A DNA stretch of 35,638 bases, taken from assembly GCA_024280635.1 (NCBI GenBank), contig JAJRPS010000027.1:1-35638 (forward strand). Reading direction: 5' to 3'. Origin of the DNA: Bacteroidota bacterium. Lineage in GTDB: Bacteria > Bacteroidota > Bacteroidia > Flavobacteriales > Flavobacteriaceae. The translations under genes were made by a program, and so were the position numbers. Positions 1 to 29,611 of this stretch are shown here, in pieces. Each line of letters opens with the position of its first letter. Positions within the stretch are counted from its first letter, which is position 1. The notes beneath the pieces were generated by a model. The model was not told where the DNA came from. It saw only the letters and a program-made list of their open reading frames with translations, and ran no database searches.

Positions 1-67
1 CCTCGACTTGCATGTGTTAAGCCTGCCGCTAGCGTTCATCCTGAGCCAGGATCAAACTCTTCATCGT
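1..67 (-). rRNA. rrs: 16S ribosomal RNA, 5' end (partial)
   Basis: The reverse complement of 41-60 is the universal 27F site AGAGTTTGATCCTGGCTCAG, followed by the conserved start of helix 3 with the AACACATGCAAGTCGA stretch. Placing the first base by comparison with the E. coli 5' end puts the mature terminus near 67. Transcription runs leftward out of the window, so only about 67 bases are present. Confidence 0.97.
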
Positions 68-1004: not shown

Positions 1005-1517
1005 TTACTTTATTGTATTTGATATTATTAACATAGTTTCTAACACGCTTTTAAGTTCCTTTATATCTAAAATTGTTTCTAAAACGGATAAAGTTATAAA
1101 TGTATGTTGTTTGATTATTTTTGAAGAAATAAAGACCTTATGGTTAGTCACAAAATGTTCATCATTTAAAAGTTTTTTTGTGATATTATTTTTAGAAATA
1201 GAGTATCTTATATTAATTGATGATTTATGAAATAATTTATTCCAGAACCTACTAAATGAATTTCTGTAAAAAATTTTTATTGGTTCACTTTTATAACTTG
1301 TTTTTAAAATTAATTTATAATCTGGTTCTTCTTCATCAATACCTAAATCTACTCCAAATTGACAATGCCATAATATTTTAATTTAATTTTTATTATGCTG
1401 ATATACACAATATATCTTTTGACTTTTCAAAGCACCGTCTGGTGTATGAAACAACTTTACTTTGTCTTCAAAATATTTACAGTTTAAATCTAATGATATT
1501 TGTTTAATTAGATTCAT
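1005..1517 (-). pseudogene. Immunity-like gene paired with the Rhs tip; one in-frame stop
   Basis: This frame starts with ATG at 1517-1515, inside the last codons of the Rhs tail (14-base overlap, toxin stop at 1504-1506). It runs 171 codons to TAA at 1007-1005. It is open throughout except for one TAA at 1385-1383 (codon 45, after QHNKN). The frame is unchanged on both sides of that stop, and the 125 codons after it are open, which is unlikely by chance in such AT-rich DNA. Position, overlap and orientation fit the immunity gene that normally follows an Rhs C-terminal toxin. I recognise no protein family. The downstream part has hydrophobic and basic patches but no obvious membrane helix. 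It is probably a recently inactivated gene; a suppressed stop or a sequence error is possible. Confidence 0.6.
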
Positions 1518-2383
1518 CTTCTTTGTTTTTATCTTTTTTTAGTTTCTTCTCTAAATCTGATTTTAAACCCAGAAGTTGATTTCTTTCTTTTTTATGTGCT
1601 TCTAATTGTGATTTAACTAATAACTCTTTCCCTAATGCTTCGCCAATTTGAGCACCAAGTTCGCCACTTTCTTTACCTTTTTTACTCGCTGTATTAATTA
1701 AATTACTTGGGTTATATTTCGTATTATAAACCAATTCACCTCTATAAATTTGCCCATCAAGTTTATCAATTTGAATATCTAACTGTAATATTTGAAATTC
1801 TTTAAAATTATTAACTTTTCGTTTTGAAAATTCTTCTCTAACCTTTGAAGTGAAAAATGATTTTTCTTTTACGCCAACGACTCTATTAAGATATGAAGGT
1901 AAATTTTCTTTTGCTTTTATAAATTGTGAAGGTGTTATTTTTCGATTTTCTCATTAACAGCTATCAAAAATTTAAAATTTGATTGAATACCAGCACCTTT
2001 TGTTTTAGGGTTTTTTAAATCAAAATCTGTGGTAACTTTAAAATCTTGTATATGTCCATCTTTAAAAGTAATATCATATGTTGTAAATTCCAATCCTTCT
2101 AAATCTATTCCATCGATTACTCTATTTTCACTAAAAGCATAAGAAGAGTTCCAAGGATAATCTCTAAATAATGGATCAACAGAATCGAAATGCCCAATTC
2201 TTGGATCATACATTCTAAACTTAAAGTTTATGCTATTTCCCTCGCCTTTTATTTCATCATCTTTTTCTTGACCCTGGAAGCCGTAACGGTAGTTACTACT
2301 GCTGTCGTGACGGTTTGGCACGAGCATACCAAAAGGATAGTATCATTATATGTTGCAACATTTGGCGTATAGGGGTTCTTCAT
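1504..2383 (-). pseudogene. Displaced Rhs C-terminal tip with toxin-like tail (frameshifted)
   Basis: From ATG at 2383 the frame reads [14 protein letters not shown], loses one base near 2343, then continues [12 protein letters not shown] into a typical Rhs core with [30 protein letters not shown] and [18 protein letters not shown]. After the core a variable tail begins. It hits TAA at 1935-1937 just past an A5 run (1938-1942), and the next frame resumes as [18 protein letters not shown] and runs to TAA at 1504-1506, ending in a Lys/Glu-rich probable coiled coil. Both breaks are repaired by one added base. No long Rhs/YD-repeat body precedes it. This is the structure of an orphan Rhs tip, a displaced C-terminal toxin module that keeps only a short stretch of core. 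The tail belongs to no toxin family I can name. It is probably inactive as it stands. Confidence 0.8.
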
Positions 2384-14790: not shown

Positions 14791-16464
14791 TTAGCTGTAT
14801 TTCTTTTTTCGATAAAAAGTATATCCAAATCCAAACAACACAAGCAATAACAACGGAATACCAATATTAATAAATTGCCATTTTTGTTTTTCTTTTGCTA
14901 TGCGTGCAATATCTAAAAGTGAAATTTTAACTTCTTTATTTCGGACTTTTAACAAGCCAGTATCGTCTAACAAATAATTTACCGCATTTAACAAAAACTC
15001 TTTATTACCGTAAGTTCTTCCTGTAAATTTATCAAATCCTAATGCTAAAGGTTTTCCTTTTTCTACTTGGTTTTTAATGATGTCTCCATCTGCTACTATA
15101 ATTATTTTAGCATCCTTACCTTCATCTTTAGCGTCTTTATACTTAAAAGGTTTTACCCTATTCTTATAATTAGAAGTGAAATTACCCTCAAGTAAAGCTG
15201 CTAAATTTAAATGTTTTTTGTGGTAGCTTTTTATATCTGGTTTTTCTTTTCTAGCAATAGCTTTAAAGCTTACTAATGCAGGCACTCCTATTGTTGCTGT
15301 TAATGGTGATGATTGCAATAAGGGTGTTTTTTTTAAGTTTACTCCTTGTTTTAACAAATCAATACTGTTTGCAAATTCAAATTTTACAGCATTTATGTTA
15401 TTCACTATTTCATTTTTTACTGTTGGTATTACTAACGGATTGTAGAACCAAGGGTATTTATTAAATTGCCCGTTTACATCTGCCAAAACAATATCTGCCG
15501 CATACATGTCTTTTACTAAAACAGGATTTACTCTAAAACCATAACTGAAAAATAAATCAGTCAAATTCAAATCTCTAGCAATAGTCATCATCTGAAAATT
15601 GGGAGGTTTAATACTATCCATTTCGGCGTGCACTGCATCTATTAACCATAAAGTTTTACCTCCATTCATAGTGTATTGATCCAATACATATTTTTCTTTA
15701 TCAGTAAAACGCTTTGTTGGTTTTGCTATTATAGCCAAATCAAATTTCTCTAAATTCTGCAAGGTTACAACCGACTTTGTGTTGGCTGAGTCCAATGCGA
15801 AAGGTGTGATTTTATATGGGTATTCTTTTTCTAAGGTTTGATAAAAATCGAATGCATGAATACTCTTCAACTCATCATTACCAATAATATGTGCTATATT
15901 TTTTATTTTTGTAGTCGTCACATTTTTAAAAGCGCTTGCAAAGGCATACTCTAAATGTTGTATTGAGTTGTTGATGCGCTCACCTGTAGTGCTCCCTATA
16001 TTATTTTTAAGTAATGCTACTTTTGCTACTTTTTTGTTATGATTAATTACTGCCCACGGAAATACCAATTGCTGTGATGTTTTACCGTTTTCTACAATAT
16101 CTACACGTGCAGGTGGCATCCCAAATTTTTGCATTTCAGCAGCTATGGCATCTACATTTTCATTTATTGTTTTTGCATTTATATAAGTTACTAGTACATT
16201 CGAGTTTTCTGCAATAAAACCTTCCAGCAGCTGTTTGGTTTCCAATTGTAAACGCCTAAATTCTGCTGGTAAATTCCCTTCCAAATACACATCTACATAA
16301 ATGGGTGAATCTACATTTTTCACAGTATTAATGGAGGCTTCAGATAGAGTATACCGAGCATCCTTAGTCATGTCCCAACGTGTGTAAAATTGAGTGCTCA
16401 CATAGTTTAGTAACACTACTGCCAATATGGCTAATACCGTTTGTATGTATTTATTTTTCAACAT
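14791..16464 (-). CDS. gldG: Gliding-motility ABC transporter substrate-binding-like protein GldG
   Basis: GldG works with GldA and GldF as an ABC-type complex needed for gliding in Flavobacterium johnsoniae. The 557-residue protein has an N-terminal membrane anchor (about 8-25), a long periplasmic ABC-2 auxiliary domain (with DVYLEGNLPAEFRRL, GGKTLWLIDAV and ADGDIIKNQ), and a C-terminal membrane helix (about 530-550) with a KKKYS tail. It starts two bases after the stop of an unknown membrane gene, which itself overlaps gldF, so the three are translationally linked. gldA is not in the window. Confidence 0.92.
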   Translation of the reverse strand: MLKNKYIQTVLAILAVVLLNYVSTQFYTRWDMTKDARYTLSEASINTVKNVDSPIYVDVYLEGNLPAEFRRLQLETKQLLEGFIAENSNVLVTYINAKTINENVDAIAAEMQKFGMPPARVDIVENGKTSQQLVFPWAVINHNKKVAKVALLKNNIGSTTGERINNSIQHLEYAFASAFKNVTTTKIKNIAHIIGNDELKSIHAFDFYQTLEKEYPYKITPFALDSANTKSVVTLQNLEKFDLAIIAKPTKRFTDKEKYVLDQYTMNGGKTLWLIDAVHAEMDSIKPPNFQMMTIARDLNLTDLFFSYGFRVNPVLVKDMYAADIVLADVNGQFNKYPWFYNPLVIPTVKNEIVNNINAVKFEFANSIDLLKQGVNLKKTPLLQSSPLTATIGVPALVSFKAIARKEKPDIKSYHKKHLNLAALLEGNFTSNYKNRVKPFKYKDAKDEGKDAKIIIVADGDIIKNQVEKGKPLALGFDKFTGRTYGNKEFLLNAVNYLLDDTGLLKVRNKEVKISLLDIARIAKEKQKWQFINIGIPLLLLVLFGFGYTFYRKKKYS

Positions 16465-17015: not shown

Positions 17016-17724
17016 TATTTTTGAGTTATGGTAAGTTTTGTGAAAAATAAAAAAAGTGCAGCTACACTTCCAAAATAAAGTATGTTTCTACTATCAATAA
17101 CACCATTACTAATGGTATTATAATGATATTTTATCCCGAAGTTACGTATTGCTAAATCTGAAATTTCAGCAATACCCTCAAATCCGTAATACAATATAAA
17201 ACAAATAATAATTGCTAATAAAAAGGCCACAATTTGATTGTTACTAATAGCTGATGTAAAAATACCCACCGCAGCATACACCGCAGCTACACAAAAAATA
17301 CCTACATACGCTCCGAAGGTTGCCCCTAAATCAATATTACCAATAGGGTTACCCAATTGCTGCACGGTATAAATATATAATAAGGTTGGTAATAGTGAAA
17401 AAACAATTAACACTAAAACGCCTAAATACTTTCCTAAAATTAATTGCAGTAATGTAATGGGTTTGGTGAGTAATAATTCCAAAGTACCTTGCTTTTTTTC
17501 TTCAGCAAAACTTTTCATGGTAATAGCGGGTACTAAAAAAATAAAAACCCACGGCGCCAAAAAATAAACCCTGATAAATCAGCAAAACCGTATTCTAAAA
17601 TATTAAATTTTCCTTTAAATACCCATAAAAACAAACCGTTTGCTAGTAAGAATAATCCTATAACTAAATAACCAATTGGCGTTGCAAAAAATGATTGTAT
17701 TTCTTTTTTTAAAATAGCGTACAT
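17015..17724 (-). pseudogene. gldF: Gliding-motility ABC transporter permease GldF, frameshifted
   Basis: GldF is the ABC-2-type permease of the GldAFG complex. The first frame begins MYAILKKEIQSFFATPIGYL at 17724 and continues to NILEYGFADLSG. The second frame resumes LAPWVFIFLVPAITMKSFAEE and runs with four further helices to TITQK at 17015. The break falls in a six-base homopolymer (17559-17564). One added base would restore a continuous frame of about 236 residues, close to the usual length of about 240. Nothing else is damaged, so the lesion is either recent, variable by slippage, bypassed by ribosomal frameshifting, or a sequencing error. The downstream membrane gene overlaps its stop by one base. 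Confidence 0.85.
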
Positions 17725-19523: not shown

Positions 19524-20120
19524 ATGGGATTTTTTGATGTATTCTTTGGAAAAAAAAACAAAACCAATTCTCCTATACAGGAAGAAAAAGGTCAGTTTAT
19601 GCCTAAAACAAAAATACCTGTTGATGAACTTTTTGCTCAAAATTTTATCAAAAATGGAGGTAAATTTTTATATTCGGATACACTAGAAAATGTTTTTGAA
19701 AATTTTAAAGCTATTTTAGAAGAAAATAATTGGGATTCTAAAAACGTTCTTTACCATGACGAAACACTTAAAGAACAGTTTAAAACCCTTAATTTAGAAA
19801 ATAACACCATCAACAATCCCTCATTTTTTTTTACTACGTGTGAAAGTTTAATTGCAGATAAAGGATCTATTTTAATATCTTCCAATCAAATTAAAGAACA
19901 AAAAATAAATACCTTACCCAATAATTTTATTTTATTCGCAACCACAAGTCAACTAAAAGAAACCATTAGTGATGGGTTAAAAGCCATTAAAAAGAATAGC
20001 ACTCAAATCCCTTCAAACATCACTACCTTAAAATGTTTTAAAAATTCTGAAGAAAAAGATTTTCTTACCTATGGTAGTAACTCAAAAAACCTATATTTGC
20101 TTCTTTTAGAAGATTTATAA
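19524..20120 (+). CDS. LUD-domain protein (LutC/YkgG family)
   Basis: The 198-residue protein has the LUD fold pattern: an N-terminal FFGKKNK basic stretch, a central FFTTCESLIADKGSILISS segment, and a late LYLLLLEDL strand. LutC-type proteins take part in lactate oxidation with LutA and LutB, which are not here. In flavobacteria I recall this single LUD gene beside cdsA, which suggests a different role. It is the first gene of a tight run, with cdsA three bases downstream. Family call likely, function open. Confidence 0.75.
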   Translation: MGFFDVFFGKKNKTNSPIQEEKGQFMPKTKIPVDELFAQNFIKNGGKFLYSDTLENVFENFKAILEENNWDSKNVLYHDETLKEQFKTLNLENNTINNPSFFFTTCESLIADKGSILISSNQIKEQKINTLPNNFILFATTSQLKETISDGLKAIKKNSTQIPSNITTLKCFKNSEEKDFLTYGSNSKNLYLLLLEDL

Positions 20121-20123
20121 AAA

Positions 20124-20948
20124 ATGAATGAAACTTTAACACGTGCACTTTCTGGCTTTGTATACGTAGCAATACTTATTACAGCTATTTACACCTCACA
20201 AACAGCATTTGCAATATTATTTTTAATATTTGCAAGCATCTCTTTATGGGAATTTAACAAGCTTAGTAAAATTAACCCCCTTATAAGTTTCATCACCTTA
20301 ATAGCTATTGCTTTTTTAACATATATTAGCCTAAAAGATAATAACGAAACACGCACTAACAGTTTCATTATCCTAGCAAGCATCACATTAATTACACATG
20401 TAATACTCACCTACAAACTCTTCAAATTAAAAGCAATAAATAATACTTTAGGACTTTTTAAAACCATATTACCCATTTCCTATTTATTAATTCCGTTTGC
20501 ATTATTAGTATTAATCCCCTCTATAATCAATAATAAATACAACCCCAATATTATTTTTGGCATTTTAGTGATTATTTGGTCAAACGATACTTTTGCCTAT
20601 TTAGTAGGTAGAAAATTTGGAAAATACAAACTATTTGAAAAAGTATCTCCTAAAAAAACTATAGAAGGTTTTTTAGGAGGATTATTTTTCGGAATGATTG
20701 CGGCAGTAATTATTGCTAATACCACAATAAGTTTACCTATCATTCAATGGCTTATTTTAAGCATTATCATTGCTTTTAGTGGTGCTATTGGCGACTTAGT
20801 TGCCTCAAAATTTAAAAGAGAAGCAAATATTAAGGACAGTAGTAATCTAATTCCCGGTCATGGTGGTTTTTTAGATCGACTAGACAGTCTTATATTTGTT
20901 TCTTCATTTGTATATTTATATCTTCAAATACTTAACTATGTTTCATAA
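20124..20948 (+). CDS. cdsA: Phosphatidate cytidylyltransferase
   Basis: CdsA makes CDP-diacylglycerol from phosphatidate and CTP, the branch point of phospholipid synthesis in the inner membrane. The 274-residue protein has about eight membrane helices and the family signature near its end: GDLVASKFKREANIKD, then PGHGGFLDRLDS. It also has the conserved GRKFGKYKLFEKVSPKKTIEG loop. The psd gene begins inside its last codons (11-base overlap), so the two are translationally coupled. Confidence 0.95.
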   Translation: MNETLTRALSGFVYVAILITAIYTSQTAFAILFLIFASISLWEFNKLSKINPLISFITLIAIAFLTYISLKDNNETRTNSFIILASITLITHVILTYKLFKLKAINNTLGLFKTILPISYLLIPFALLVLIPSIINNKYNPNIIFGILVIIWSNDTFAYLVGRKFGKYKLFEKVSPKKTIEGFLGGLFFGMIAAVIIANTTISLPIIQWLILSIIIAFSGAIGDLVASKFKREANIKDSSNLIPGHGGFLDRLDSLIFVSSFVYLYLQILNYVS

Positions 20949-21591
20949 AGAAGGAAATCAATCAATCATATTAGTCATTATTGTTGTTACCGCATTAATA
21001 CTAGGAGCTAATTACTTAATAACAAATCAAATCATTCAATATTTAATATATGCTGCAGCAGTATTTTTACTAGTGATTATCTTACAGTTTTTTAGAAACC
21101 CAAAAAGAAACACTGTTTTAAATGATCAACAAATTATTGCCCCAGTAGACGGAAAAGTAGTAGTTATTGAAGAAGTATTTGAAAAAGAATATTTTAATGA
21201 AAAGCGTTTACAAGTTTCTATTTTTATGTCCCCCATAAACGTACACGTTACCCGATATGCATTAAGCGGTTTGGTTAATTTTAGCAAATACCACCCTGGT
21301 AAATTTTTAGTAGCATGGCACCCCAAAGCTTCTGAAGAAAATGAACGTACTACCATTGTAATTAAAAACAAAACCTTTGGTGAAATTTTATACCGACAAA
21401 TTGCAGGAGCACTTGCAAGACGTATTGTAAATTATGCAAAAGAAGGCGAACAAGTAATACAAGGTACTGATGCTGGTTTTATTAAATTTGGGTCAAGAGT
21501 AGATTTATTCTTACCTTTAGGAACAAAATTAAATGTATCTTTAAATCAAGTTGTAAAAGGAGGAGAAACCGTTATTGCTACAAATGAATAA
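20938..21591 (+). CDS. psd: Phosphatidylserine decarboxylase proenzyme
   Basis: Psd forms phosphatidylethanolamine from phosphatidylserine using a pyruvoyl group made by self-cleavage. The 217-residue protein has two N-terminal membrane helices (about 8-28 and 32-50), the FFRNPKR segment, APVDGKVV, MSPINVHVTRYALSG and the cleavage site FGS (G185/S186) in FIKFGSRVDLFLP. This is the short proteobacterial/Bacteroidota type. The ATG at 20938 is chosen because a longer frame would only translate the end of cdsA in another frame. PssA is not in the window. Confidence 0.93.
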   Translation: MFHKEGNQSIILVIIVVTALILGANYLITNQIIQYLIYAAAVFLLVIILQFFRNPKRNTVLNDQQIIAPVDGKVVVIEEVFEKEYFNEKRLQVSIFMSPINVHVTRYALSGLVNFSKYHPGKFLVAWHPKASEENERTTIVIKNKTFGEILYRQIAGALARRIVNYAKEGEQVIQGTDAGFIKFGSRVDLFLPLGTKLNVSLNQVVKGGETVIATNE

Positions 21592-22541: not shown

Positions 22542-24109
22542 ATGTGCACTAAAAAACACATCGTTTTATTATTATTTCTATTCATTTTTATTAATAGCTA
22601 TGCACAAACCGTGACTCTAGAAGAGTTAATGGGAACCGAGTTTAAAGCATTAGTCATAAACAATCCTGAAAAATTCATAAAAAGAATAGACTCCTTACTG
22701 TTATCTAAAAACCTAAAAATAAGTAAAGCGGAAGTTTATTTACTAAAAGGGCAAGCATATTATGTTTTAAATCAACCTGTAAATGCTAACGTATTTTTAA
22801 AAAAAGCAATTGCATTTGCAAAAAAAACAAAGAACTAAACTTTGAAGCACAAACCTATATCGTACAAGCTGGTGTACAAGATATGCTTGATAACTTTGAT
22901 AAATCCGACACCTATTTAGACTTAGCACTCCCTATTTTTAAGCAATTAAAAGACACTCTTGGCATTATTGAAGTTTATCAATCAAAAGCGGTTAATCTTA
23001 TAAACCAAGAAAAATATCAAGAGTCTAATTATATTTTATTAAACAAACAATTTTTACAGTTATTAGAAACAGATATAGAAAGTTATATGATAACCTGTTT
23101 TTACATCACTACCAATTATTTGGGATTAAATCAATTAAAAAATGCTCAAGAATATGCTAAAAAACTATATGACAAAGAGCTTGAAAAGAAGATAAAAAAG
23201 TTATCAGAAGTTGAGCTTGCAAACTACAATTACTATAAAAACTCAACAATTATGAGTTTTGCAGGTTATTACATAAGAAACAAAGAAACAGATGCTGCCC
23301 TAAATCAATTATCTCAAATAAACAAGACACTTATAGATCATGACCTTTATATGAAAAAAGAGTATTTTGAGGATTATATTTCAATATATCAACAAAAGTC
23401 AAATATTAGCTTAGCAAAAAAATACACTGATTCATTAACCACACTAACAGACCAATTACTAAAACAGGAAATAAATAACAATATGCTTTTAGTGAATGAT
23501 AATCATAACTTATCTACTACACTTACGCAAAATGAGCAATTAAAAAACAAATATCTTTATTTTTTAATATTTAGCTTAGCCGCATCACTATTACTAATCG
23601 TTTTTATAAAACAGCTTCGTAAAAAACAGCAAGGTAAATTACTTGAAAAAACAAAAGAAAATATTCAAATCTCTTTAAAAGCAGATAAATTAAAACAATC
23701 TAAACTACACATACAATCCGTAAATCAAAAATTTACAGAAAATATTGACTATTCATTATCAGATATTTTAAAGGAAAAAGATGCTCAAGAAAGAAGAAAA
23801 AAAACACAGCTACTAAAAAATAAATTACATATAAAAAAGGTAGCTGAAAATGACATAAATACTTACAATAATTTACACGCCATAACACCTTTATTTTTCA
23901 AAACAGTAAAACAAAACCACCCTAACTTAACAGAAGATGATTTAGTTATTTGCTATTACCTACATATTGAATTAAACAATAAGCAAATATCAGAAATACT
24001 ACATAAAACAATACGTTCCATTGAGAGTAAAAGGTATCGTATAGGTAAAAAAATGAACCTAAACGTCAAAAAAACCACTCTTCTTGACGAAATAAACAAG
24101 TGTTTTTAA
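22542..24109 (+). pseudogene. TPR membrane regulator with LuxR-type C-terminus, frameshifted
   Basis: The first frame (22542-22838) encodes a signal peptide ending INSYAQ and TPR-like helices, and stops after AIAFAKKTKN. The second frame resumes KELNFEAQTYIVQAGVQDML and continues to 24109. It contains more TPR-like repeats, one membrane helix (YLYFLIFSLAASLLLIVFI), a coiled coil and a C-terminal LuxR-like helix-turn-helix (LTEDDLVICYYLHIELNNKQ, then SIESKRYRIGKKM). The break lies at an A8 run (22820-22827); one more A restores a frame of about 522 residues. The run reads A-AAA-AAA-C in the zero frame, a classic -1 slippery form, so recoding is possible. Such proteins sense envelope state in Bacteroidota. 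It begins two bases after the lipoprotein stop. Confidence 0.8.
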
Positions 24110-29392: not shown

Positions 29393-29421
29393 TTTCTTTT
29401 GTTTTTTTATATGTAAAAAAG

Positions 29422-29493
29422 TAGCCCATAGGAGAATCGAACTCCTGTTTCTAGGATGAAAACCTAGCGTCCTAACCACTAGACGAATGGGCC
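29422..29493 (-). tRNA. tRNA-Glu (TTC), copy 2
   Basis: The 72-base gene reads GGCCCATTCGTCTAGTGGTT on the minus strand. It has an anticodon arm CTAGG-TTTTCAT-CCTAG (anticodon TTC) and a T-arm CAGGAGTTCGATTCTCCTA. The acceptor GGCCCAT pairs with ATGGGCT with a G-T first pair, followed by discriminator A. CCA is not encoded. It is identical to the copy 46 bases upstream. Confidence 0.96.
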
Positions 29494-29539
29494 ATAATTT
29501 ATTAATTATATATGCAGCTTATGCTACTTTATTTTTTAG

Positions 29540-29611
29540 TAGCCCATAGGAGAATCGAACTCCTGTTTCTAGGATGAAAACCTAGCGTCCTAACCACTAG
29601 ACGAATGGGCC
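29540..29611 (-). tRNA. tRNA-Glu (TTC), copy 1
   Basis: Identical to 29422-29493: the same acceptor, anticodon TTC and T-arm. It is the first of the pair after a consensus promoter. The two copies share all 72 bases, but the 46-base spacer differs from the upstream flank, which points to duplication of the tRNA unit. Confidence 0.96.

What the first reader, a model, noticed from the sequence alone, without database searches (positions are those of the whole stretch)
22820..22827. A8 slippery run splitting a TPR/LuxR membrane regulator
The zero frame reads GCA AAA AAA ACA and stops soon after. A -1 slip at A-AAA-AAA-C, or one extra A, gives the full protein with membrane helix and DNA-binding end. 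The short product would be a periplasmic TPR fragment. This could be programmed recoding, phase variation, or a sequence error.
Basis: partly seen in the sequence, partly recalled or inferred. Interest (0 to 1): 0.55.

Follow-up and report, generated by a model that had tools for sequence, protein, structure and literature searches.

The report
Ordinary regulator gene, likely homopolymer error
A run of eight A's breaks the reading frame of an ordinary bacterial membrane-bound gene regulator, but distant relatives have the gene unbroken and without this run, and other genes of the same draft genome are broken in a similar way, so it is most likely a sequence-length error or a plain mutation rather than a built-in switch.

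Summary
A8 lies at 22820-22827. The zero frame (22542-22838, 98 aa) ends at TAA soon after, and the -1 frame stays open to 24109. Joined, the two give a 522-aa protein that aligns along its length with intact flavobacterial regulators: signal peptide, helical (TPR-like) part, one membrane helix, LuxR/GerE-type end. The recoding reading is not supported. All 30 homologue rows listed from 397 family genomes are open, and none of the 26 aligned has A8 near the junction (3 have A7). A second A8 in the same gene and six other in-ORF runs of 8-9 in the window are read straight through. The RNA downstream folds no better than chance. Other genes of the same draft (80% complete, 102 contigs) are also broken, by about one base: gldF in this window, murI, an OmpA/PorE-like gene and a choice-of-anchor gene. 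Most likely this is a homopolymer-length error in the assembly of an ordinary gene (0.65). A genuine single-base mutation or phase-off allele is the main rival (0.28). Programmed recoding is unlikely (0.05). Raw reads would decide and were not available; relatives closer than about 30% identity were not found. Low interest.

The parts
22542..22838 (+). zero-frame ORF, 98 aa: signal peptide and first helices, ending in TAA (22836-22838)
   Evidence: hydrophobic N-terminus, best 19-residue window at residues 7-25
22820..22827 (+). A8 run where the frame breaks
   Evidence: frame switch
22828..24109 (+). rest of the gene in the -1 frame (first ATG 22883, 408 aa)
   Evidence: colinear with intact homologues
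23552..23608 (+). predicted membrane helix (joined residues 338-356)
   Evidence: hydropathy peak 2.54; coordinates converted by hand
23894..24061 (+). C-terminal LuxR/GerE-like DNA-binding region (joined residues 452-507)
   Evidence: block shared with many homologues in tblastn and conserved in A2; GerE in 10 of 12 members of A2, not in the window's own member; coordinates converted by hand
23797..23804 (+). second A8 of the same gene, also followed by CA, read through without a break (internal control)
17018..17724 (-). gldF, broken in frame by about one base in this window (comparison case, not part of the regulator)
   Evidence: TIGR03518 positions 1-54 in one piece and 54-239 in the other; 241-aa open frame in G001 and G002; two overlapping pieces against the G002 protein

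Best explanation
The locus is one ordinary gene for a flavobacterial membrane-bound regulator: Sec-type signal, helical (TPR-like) sensor part, one membrane helix, LuxR/GerE-type DNA-binding end. The assembled sequence is out of frame by one base at a short A run, most likely because the draft consensus has the wrong homopolymer length. Shown: one gene, intact distant homologues, and other genes of the same draft broken by about one base. Inferred: that the lesion is in the assembly rather than in the cell. No frame-switching mechanism is needed.
For: The joined protein aligns over its length with intact homologues. All 30 homologue rows have no internal stop: 28 have open frames of 521-585 aa, and 2 are 946-aa proteins matched at the C-terminal end only. 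No A8 or longer lies in the stretch around the junction in 26 of 26 aligned homologues. Comparable breaks elsewhere in the same draft: gldF in this window, murI on L159, an OmpA/PorE-like gene on L126 and a choice-of-anchor B gene on L118. Weaker cases are on L166 and L131, the latter with net +1. Homology test: 3 of 193 compared loci broken by one base in this draft. gldF, missed by my overlap limit by one residue, makes it 4 of 193. In the same-genus genomes G002 and G001 taken as targets it is 0 of 326 (one-sided Fisher p 0.051, or 0.019 with gldF added afterwards; some G002 loci may be counted twice in the 326). The breaks lie at different sequences, which a dedicated slippery site does not explain. 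gldG beside the broken gldF is whole (TIGR03521 positions 3-552 of 552). Deletion errors after homopolymers of two to eight bases are described for a long-read assembly (PMC12007338, section 'Profile of Kastor detected errors', read).
Against: No reads or sequencing platform are known for this draft. The break rate at long runs is low: 40 of 41 coding A8 runs keep frame, and an A9 in the same window is in frame. So the assembly is not grossly error-prone, and a real mutation remains possible. The coarse coding-signal filter did not separate the draft from its relatives well: 21.0 candidates per Mb against 17.2 (G002) and 6.7 (G001). The murI and L131 breaks lie within a few hundred bases of a contig end, where any assembly is poorer. 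The regulator is an accessory gene with no close relative found in the genus, so genuine decay would be plausible. Two more distant rows, matched over the C-terminal part only, do carry a stop inside (G018 and G016).
Confidence: 0.65

Rival explanations
1. The eight A are real: a recent one-base mutation by slipped-strand replication has put the gene out of frame (a young pseudogene or a phase-off allele), perhaps with a trace of full-length product from polymerase or ribosome slippage at A8.
For: A8 is a natural slip site. The downstream frame is still clean, which fits a recent event. No close relative of the gene was found in the genus, so the gene is accessory. For E. [quoted passage not shown]
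Against: Conserved genes of the same draft (murI, gldF) carry the same kind of break. Other in-ORF runs of equal or greater length in the window are in frame. Phase variation cannot be told from error without reads.
Confidence: 0.28
2. Programmed recoding: -1 ribosomal frameshifting on A-AAA-AAA-C, or regular transcriptional slippage, makes a short periplasmic fragment and the full regulator in a set ratio.
For: The A8 fits the heptamer rule in phase, and both products would be sensible proteins.
Against: Run and frame break are absent in 26 of 26 aligned homologues; the longest runs near the place are A7, in 3 of 26. The 80 bases downstream fold about as well as shuffles (z -0.81; 37 of 200 shuffles at least as good), and the stem next to the run starts at spacing zero. 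No Shine-Dalgarno-like stimulator is seen upstream (by eye). The same gene has a second A8 followed by CA that is not used.
Confidence: 0.05
3. Two separate genes: a 98-aa secreted protein and a 408-aa regulator starting at ATG 22883.
For: Each ORF has an ATG and a stop.
Against: The coding signal and the homology of the second frame begin at the run, 55 bases before its first ATG. A start at 22883 would lose the signal peptide and cut inside the helical part, and none of the 28 full-length rows is split.
Confidence: 0.02

Closest known systems
Flavobacterial helical (TPR-like) / single-membrane-helix / LuxR (GerE)-type regulators, open frames of 521-585 aa
   Same: Same length class, N-terminal signal, helical part, membrane helix near residue 340 and a conserved HTH block; colinear alignment
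   Different: Here the frame is broken at A8; identity to the best-scoring one is 29%
Homopolymer-length errors of draft (especially long-read) assemblies
   Same: Breaks of about one base in several unrelated genes of one draft (PMC12007338, abstract and one section seen)
   Different: Sequencing method of this draft unknown; most long runs are in frame
Rescue of interrupted genes by transcriptional slippage, e.g. Citrobacter rodentium tssM (PMC4256274, title and start of abstract seen in the listing only)
   Same: A frame-broken gene with a meaningful downstream part
   Different: No expression data here; run not conserved and only at the threshold length

Membership tests
TPR / membrane / LuxR-type regulator | C-terminal GerE/LuxR HTH | tested here: met
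   Met through homologues only: the window's own piece has no Pfam hit; GerE is found in 10 of 12 members of the alignment and the block is conserved
TPR / membrane / LuxR-type regulator | signal peptide and single membrane helix before the HTH | tested here: met
   Hydropathy peaks at joined residues 7-25 and 338-356; no dedicated signal-peptide program was run
TPR / membrane / LuxR-type regulator | TPR repeats in the N-terminal half | tested here: inconclusive
   No TPR Pfam hit in either piece (the 98-aa piece had only a sub-threshold ORC1_wHTH match) nor among the 5 families listed for the 12 members; helical pattern judged by eye
Programmed -1 frameshifting | slippery heptamer in phase | tested here: met
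   A AAA AAA in phase at 22820-22826
Programmed -1 frameshifting | conservation of the site in relatives | tested here: not met
   0 of 26 aligned homologues have A8 or a frame break there; only distant relatives (25-29% identity) were available
Programmed -1 frameshifting | stimulatory structure at suitable spacing | tested here: not met
   z -0.81 for 80 bases downstream; pseudoknots were not modelled
Phase-variable contingency locus | run-length variation among cells or strains | not testable with these tools
   one genome per species held; no reads

The most novel reading that the evidence does not exclude
A lineage-specific slippage switch: the A8 makes a secreted helical fragment as the main product and the membrane-bound transcription regulator as a minor product, by -1 frameshifting, transcriptional slippage or run-length phase variation.
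Probability: 0.08. Interest if true: 0.45.

Novelty: not a real feature. Interest (0 to 1): 0.08.

Why it matters
As an error or a plain mutation it matters little beyond a caution: this draft has several conserved genes broken by about one base, so any frameshift or pseudogene claimed from it should be checked against reads. If the run were real and used, it would be a simple way to uncouple a secreted sensor fragment from a membrane regulator.

Tried and rejected
Same-genus relatives of the regulator: in the three other genomes of the genus held, only G001 has a match, 29% over part of the protein; G001 and G002 have none at E 1e-15. One search covered the YceI-like neighbour instead. The named-genome scan with the downstream protein found 47 pattern matches and no relative. 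The second scan went to the neighbouring gene at 20935-21588 (PSD by my recollection) and gave 80 loci; in the DNA held for them tblastn found no regulator.

A Viterbi frame scan over own-genome stretches listed 62 same-strand frame changes in 299 kb and 121 in 524.5 kb; most are ordinary gene junctions by eye. The filter 'no ATG near, coding signal of 7 or more' gave 13 in the own sample and 4 in the 80 control loci, all in the -1 direction in both sets, so direction in that filter is not evidence. With a length filter added it gave 11 (own), 4 (G002) and 2 (G001). Of the 13 own candidates I used four (regulator, L126, L159, L166) and left out nine: the Rhs-core gene at 1936, and eight read by eye as ordinary junctions (L123, L128, L162, two on L164, L167, two on L175). 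gldF and L118 were below that filter and were found by reading the list. The six candidates in G002 and G001 also read as ordinary junctions by eye; no family scan was run on them.

In the homology test two loci in G002 were flagged with net +7 and +5; they are not one-base breaks and are not in the 0 of 326. L131 (net +1) lies at a contig end and is counted in the 3 of 193.

Solved structures: no hit for the piece or the family profile. Paper searches: TPR-LuxR in Flavobacterium (0 papers), phase variation in Bacteroidetes (3 papers, listing only), recoding in Flavobacteria (1 paper, listing only), none of them on this family by title and start of abstract. PMC5009743 was searched for terms only. 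First DNA alignment of gldF: only the row L139 is usable, L140 was taken on the wrong strand.

Full report
Observation. The A8 at 22820-22827 is in the sequence. The frame from ATG 22542 ends at TAA 22836-22838 after 98 codons; the frame one base back is open to 24109. The joined reading gives 522 residues.

What the gene is. Both parts belong to one gene. In an alignment with six related proteins from other flavobacterial genomes the joined protein is colinear with them; one of the six (L019) has three extra residues at the junction. With 26 homologues the junction columns have no gap and read AIAFAKKNKELNFEAQ against, for example, ALKYAEKEKNYRIAGF in L192. Hydropathy shows a signal-peptide-like N-terminus and one membrane helix at residues 338-356. 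The C-terminal block is the part shared with most relatives; GerE (LuxR-type HTH) is reported for 10 of 12 rows of the family alignment, although not for the window's own row. TPR is inferred from the helical pattern; no TPR model was reported. The likely function, by analogy with the domain order, is a membrane-anchored regulator with an extracytoplasmic helical sensor. Its signal and targets are unknown. It follows a gene with a YceI-like domain (lipoprotein by my reading of its N-terminus) and precedes an 889-aa protein with a T9SS sorting tail.

Relatives. In 397 genomes of the family, 30 homologue rows besides the window's own two passed E 1e-15, at most three candidates per genome being scored, and all 30 have no internal stop. 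Two of the 30 are 946-aa proteins matched at the C-terminal end only; the other 28 have open frames of 521-585 aa. For the 26 of these 28 that were fetched and aligned, no A run of 8 or more lies in the 32-residue stretch around the junction; three have A7. In the earlier search of 98 genomes with the downstream piece alone, two weak, C-terminal rows have a stop inside (G018, G016). The full-length relatives are distant, 25-29% identical. In the three other genomes of the genus the best match is 29% over part of the protein. The test therefore speaks against an old, conserved switch, not against one that arose in this species.

Is the A8 special? No. In 524.5 kb of the same genome, 41 A8 runs sit between good coding signals and 40 keep frame; in the samples of G002 and G001 it is 34 of 34 and 9 of 9. 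In the window eight runs of 8 or 9 lie inside ORFs and seven are read through. They include a second A8 in the same gene at 23797-23804, also followed by CA, and an A9 at 19550-19558 followed by CAAAA that codes Lys-Lys-Asn-Lys in frame near the start of its ORF. The RNA after the run does not fold better than shuffles.

Other broken genes in the same draft. The genome is a draft of 1.91 Mb in 102 contigs, 80% complete. In the same window gldF is split: TIGR03518 positions 1-54 are in one piece and 54-239 in the next frame, while G001 and G002 have 241-aa open frames and the neighbouring gldG is whole. On L159 murI is split (TIGR00067 1-185, then a weak PRK00865 match 184-220; net -1 against G002), about 150 bases from a contig end. 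On L126 an OmpA/PorE-like gene is split (net -1; family match below the curated cut-off). On L118 a choice-of-anchor B gene is split (TIGR04312 1-125 and 134-364). L166 (OmpA; coding signal and one-sided domain match) and L131 (net +1, contig end) are weaker. In a homology test against same-genus proteins, one-base breaks were 3 of 193 compared loci in the draft (murI, L126, L131) and 0 of 326 in G002 and G001 taken as targets. gldF missed the filter by one residue of overlap, and adding it gives 4 of 193. The one-sided Fisher values are 0.051 and 0.019; the second includes a case added afterwards. The regulator itself is not in this count, and L118 had no G002 counterpart in the sample.

Reading. 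Several unrelated genes, among them murI and gldF, which I recall as essential or needed for gliding in many relatives, carry a break of about one base. The simplest account is a run-length error in the consensus. Deletion errors after homopolymers of two to eight bases are described for a long-read assembly (PMC12007338, abstract and one section read). Against it: the sequencing method is unknown, most long runs are in frame, and my coarse frame filter separated the draft from its relatives poorly (21.0, 17.2 and 6.7 per Mb). A genuine young frameshift or phase-off allele is therefore kept at 0.28. If the eight are real, some full-length product could arise by slippage. For E. coli RNA polymerase no slippage was detected on runs shorter than eight A or seven T (PMC6260861, abstract and one section read), so A8 is at the threshold. 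Programmed recoding has only the heptamer in its favour.

Verdict. Real observation, ordinary gene, most likely an assembly artefact; low interest. One look at the raw data would settle it.

Noticed in passing
window 17018-17724, minus strand: gldF (gliding-motility ABC permease) is frame-broken in this draft while gldG (14791-16464) is whole; gldF is intact in same-genus genomes G001 and G002.
   Followed up: yes
window 1507-2342, minus strand: Rhs-associated core gene (TIGR03696) with a frame change near 1936; pieces left apart and not used as evidence.
   Followed up: no
L159 1-704, L118 1225-2699, L126 12163-13784: murI, a choice-of-anchor B gene and an OmpA/PorE-like gene are each split by about one base in the same draft genome.
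   Followed up: partly
window 1-67, minus strand: The contig ends inside the first 67 positions of a 16S rRNA gene, a usual assembly break at a ribosomal RNA operon.
   Followed up: no
window 29421-29493 and 29539-29611, minus strand: Two tRNA-Glu (ttc) genes in tandem with equal Rfam scores.
   Followed up: no
L054 and L040: Contigs titled Klebsiella pneumoniae MAG and Lentimicrobium MAG encode a protein 74-75% identical to the window's 20935-21588 product, at the level of Flavobacterium; probably mislabelled or contaminated bins.
   Followed up: no
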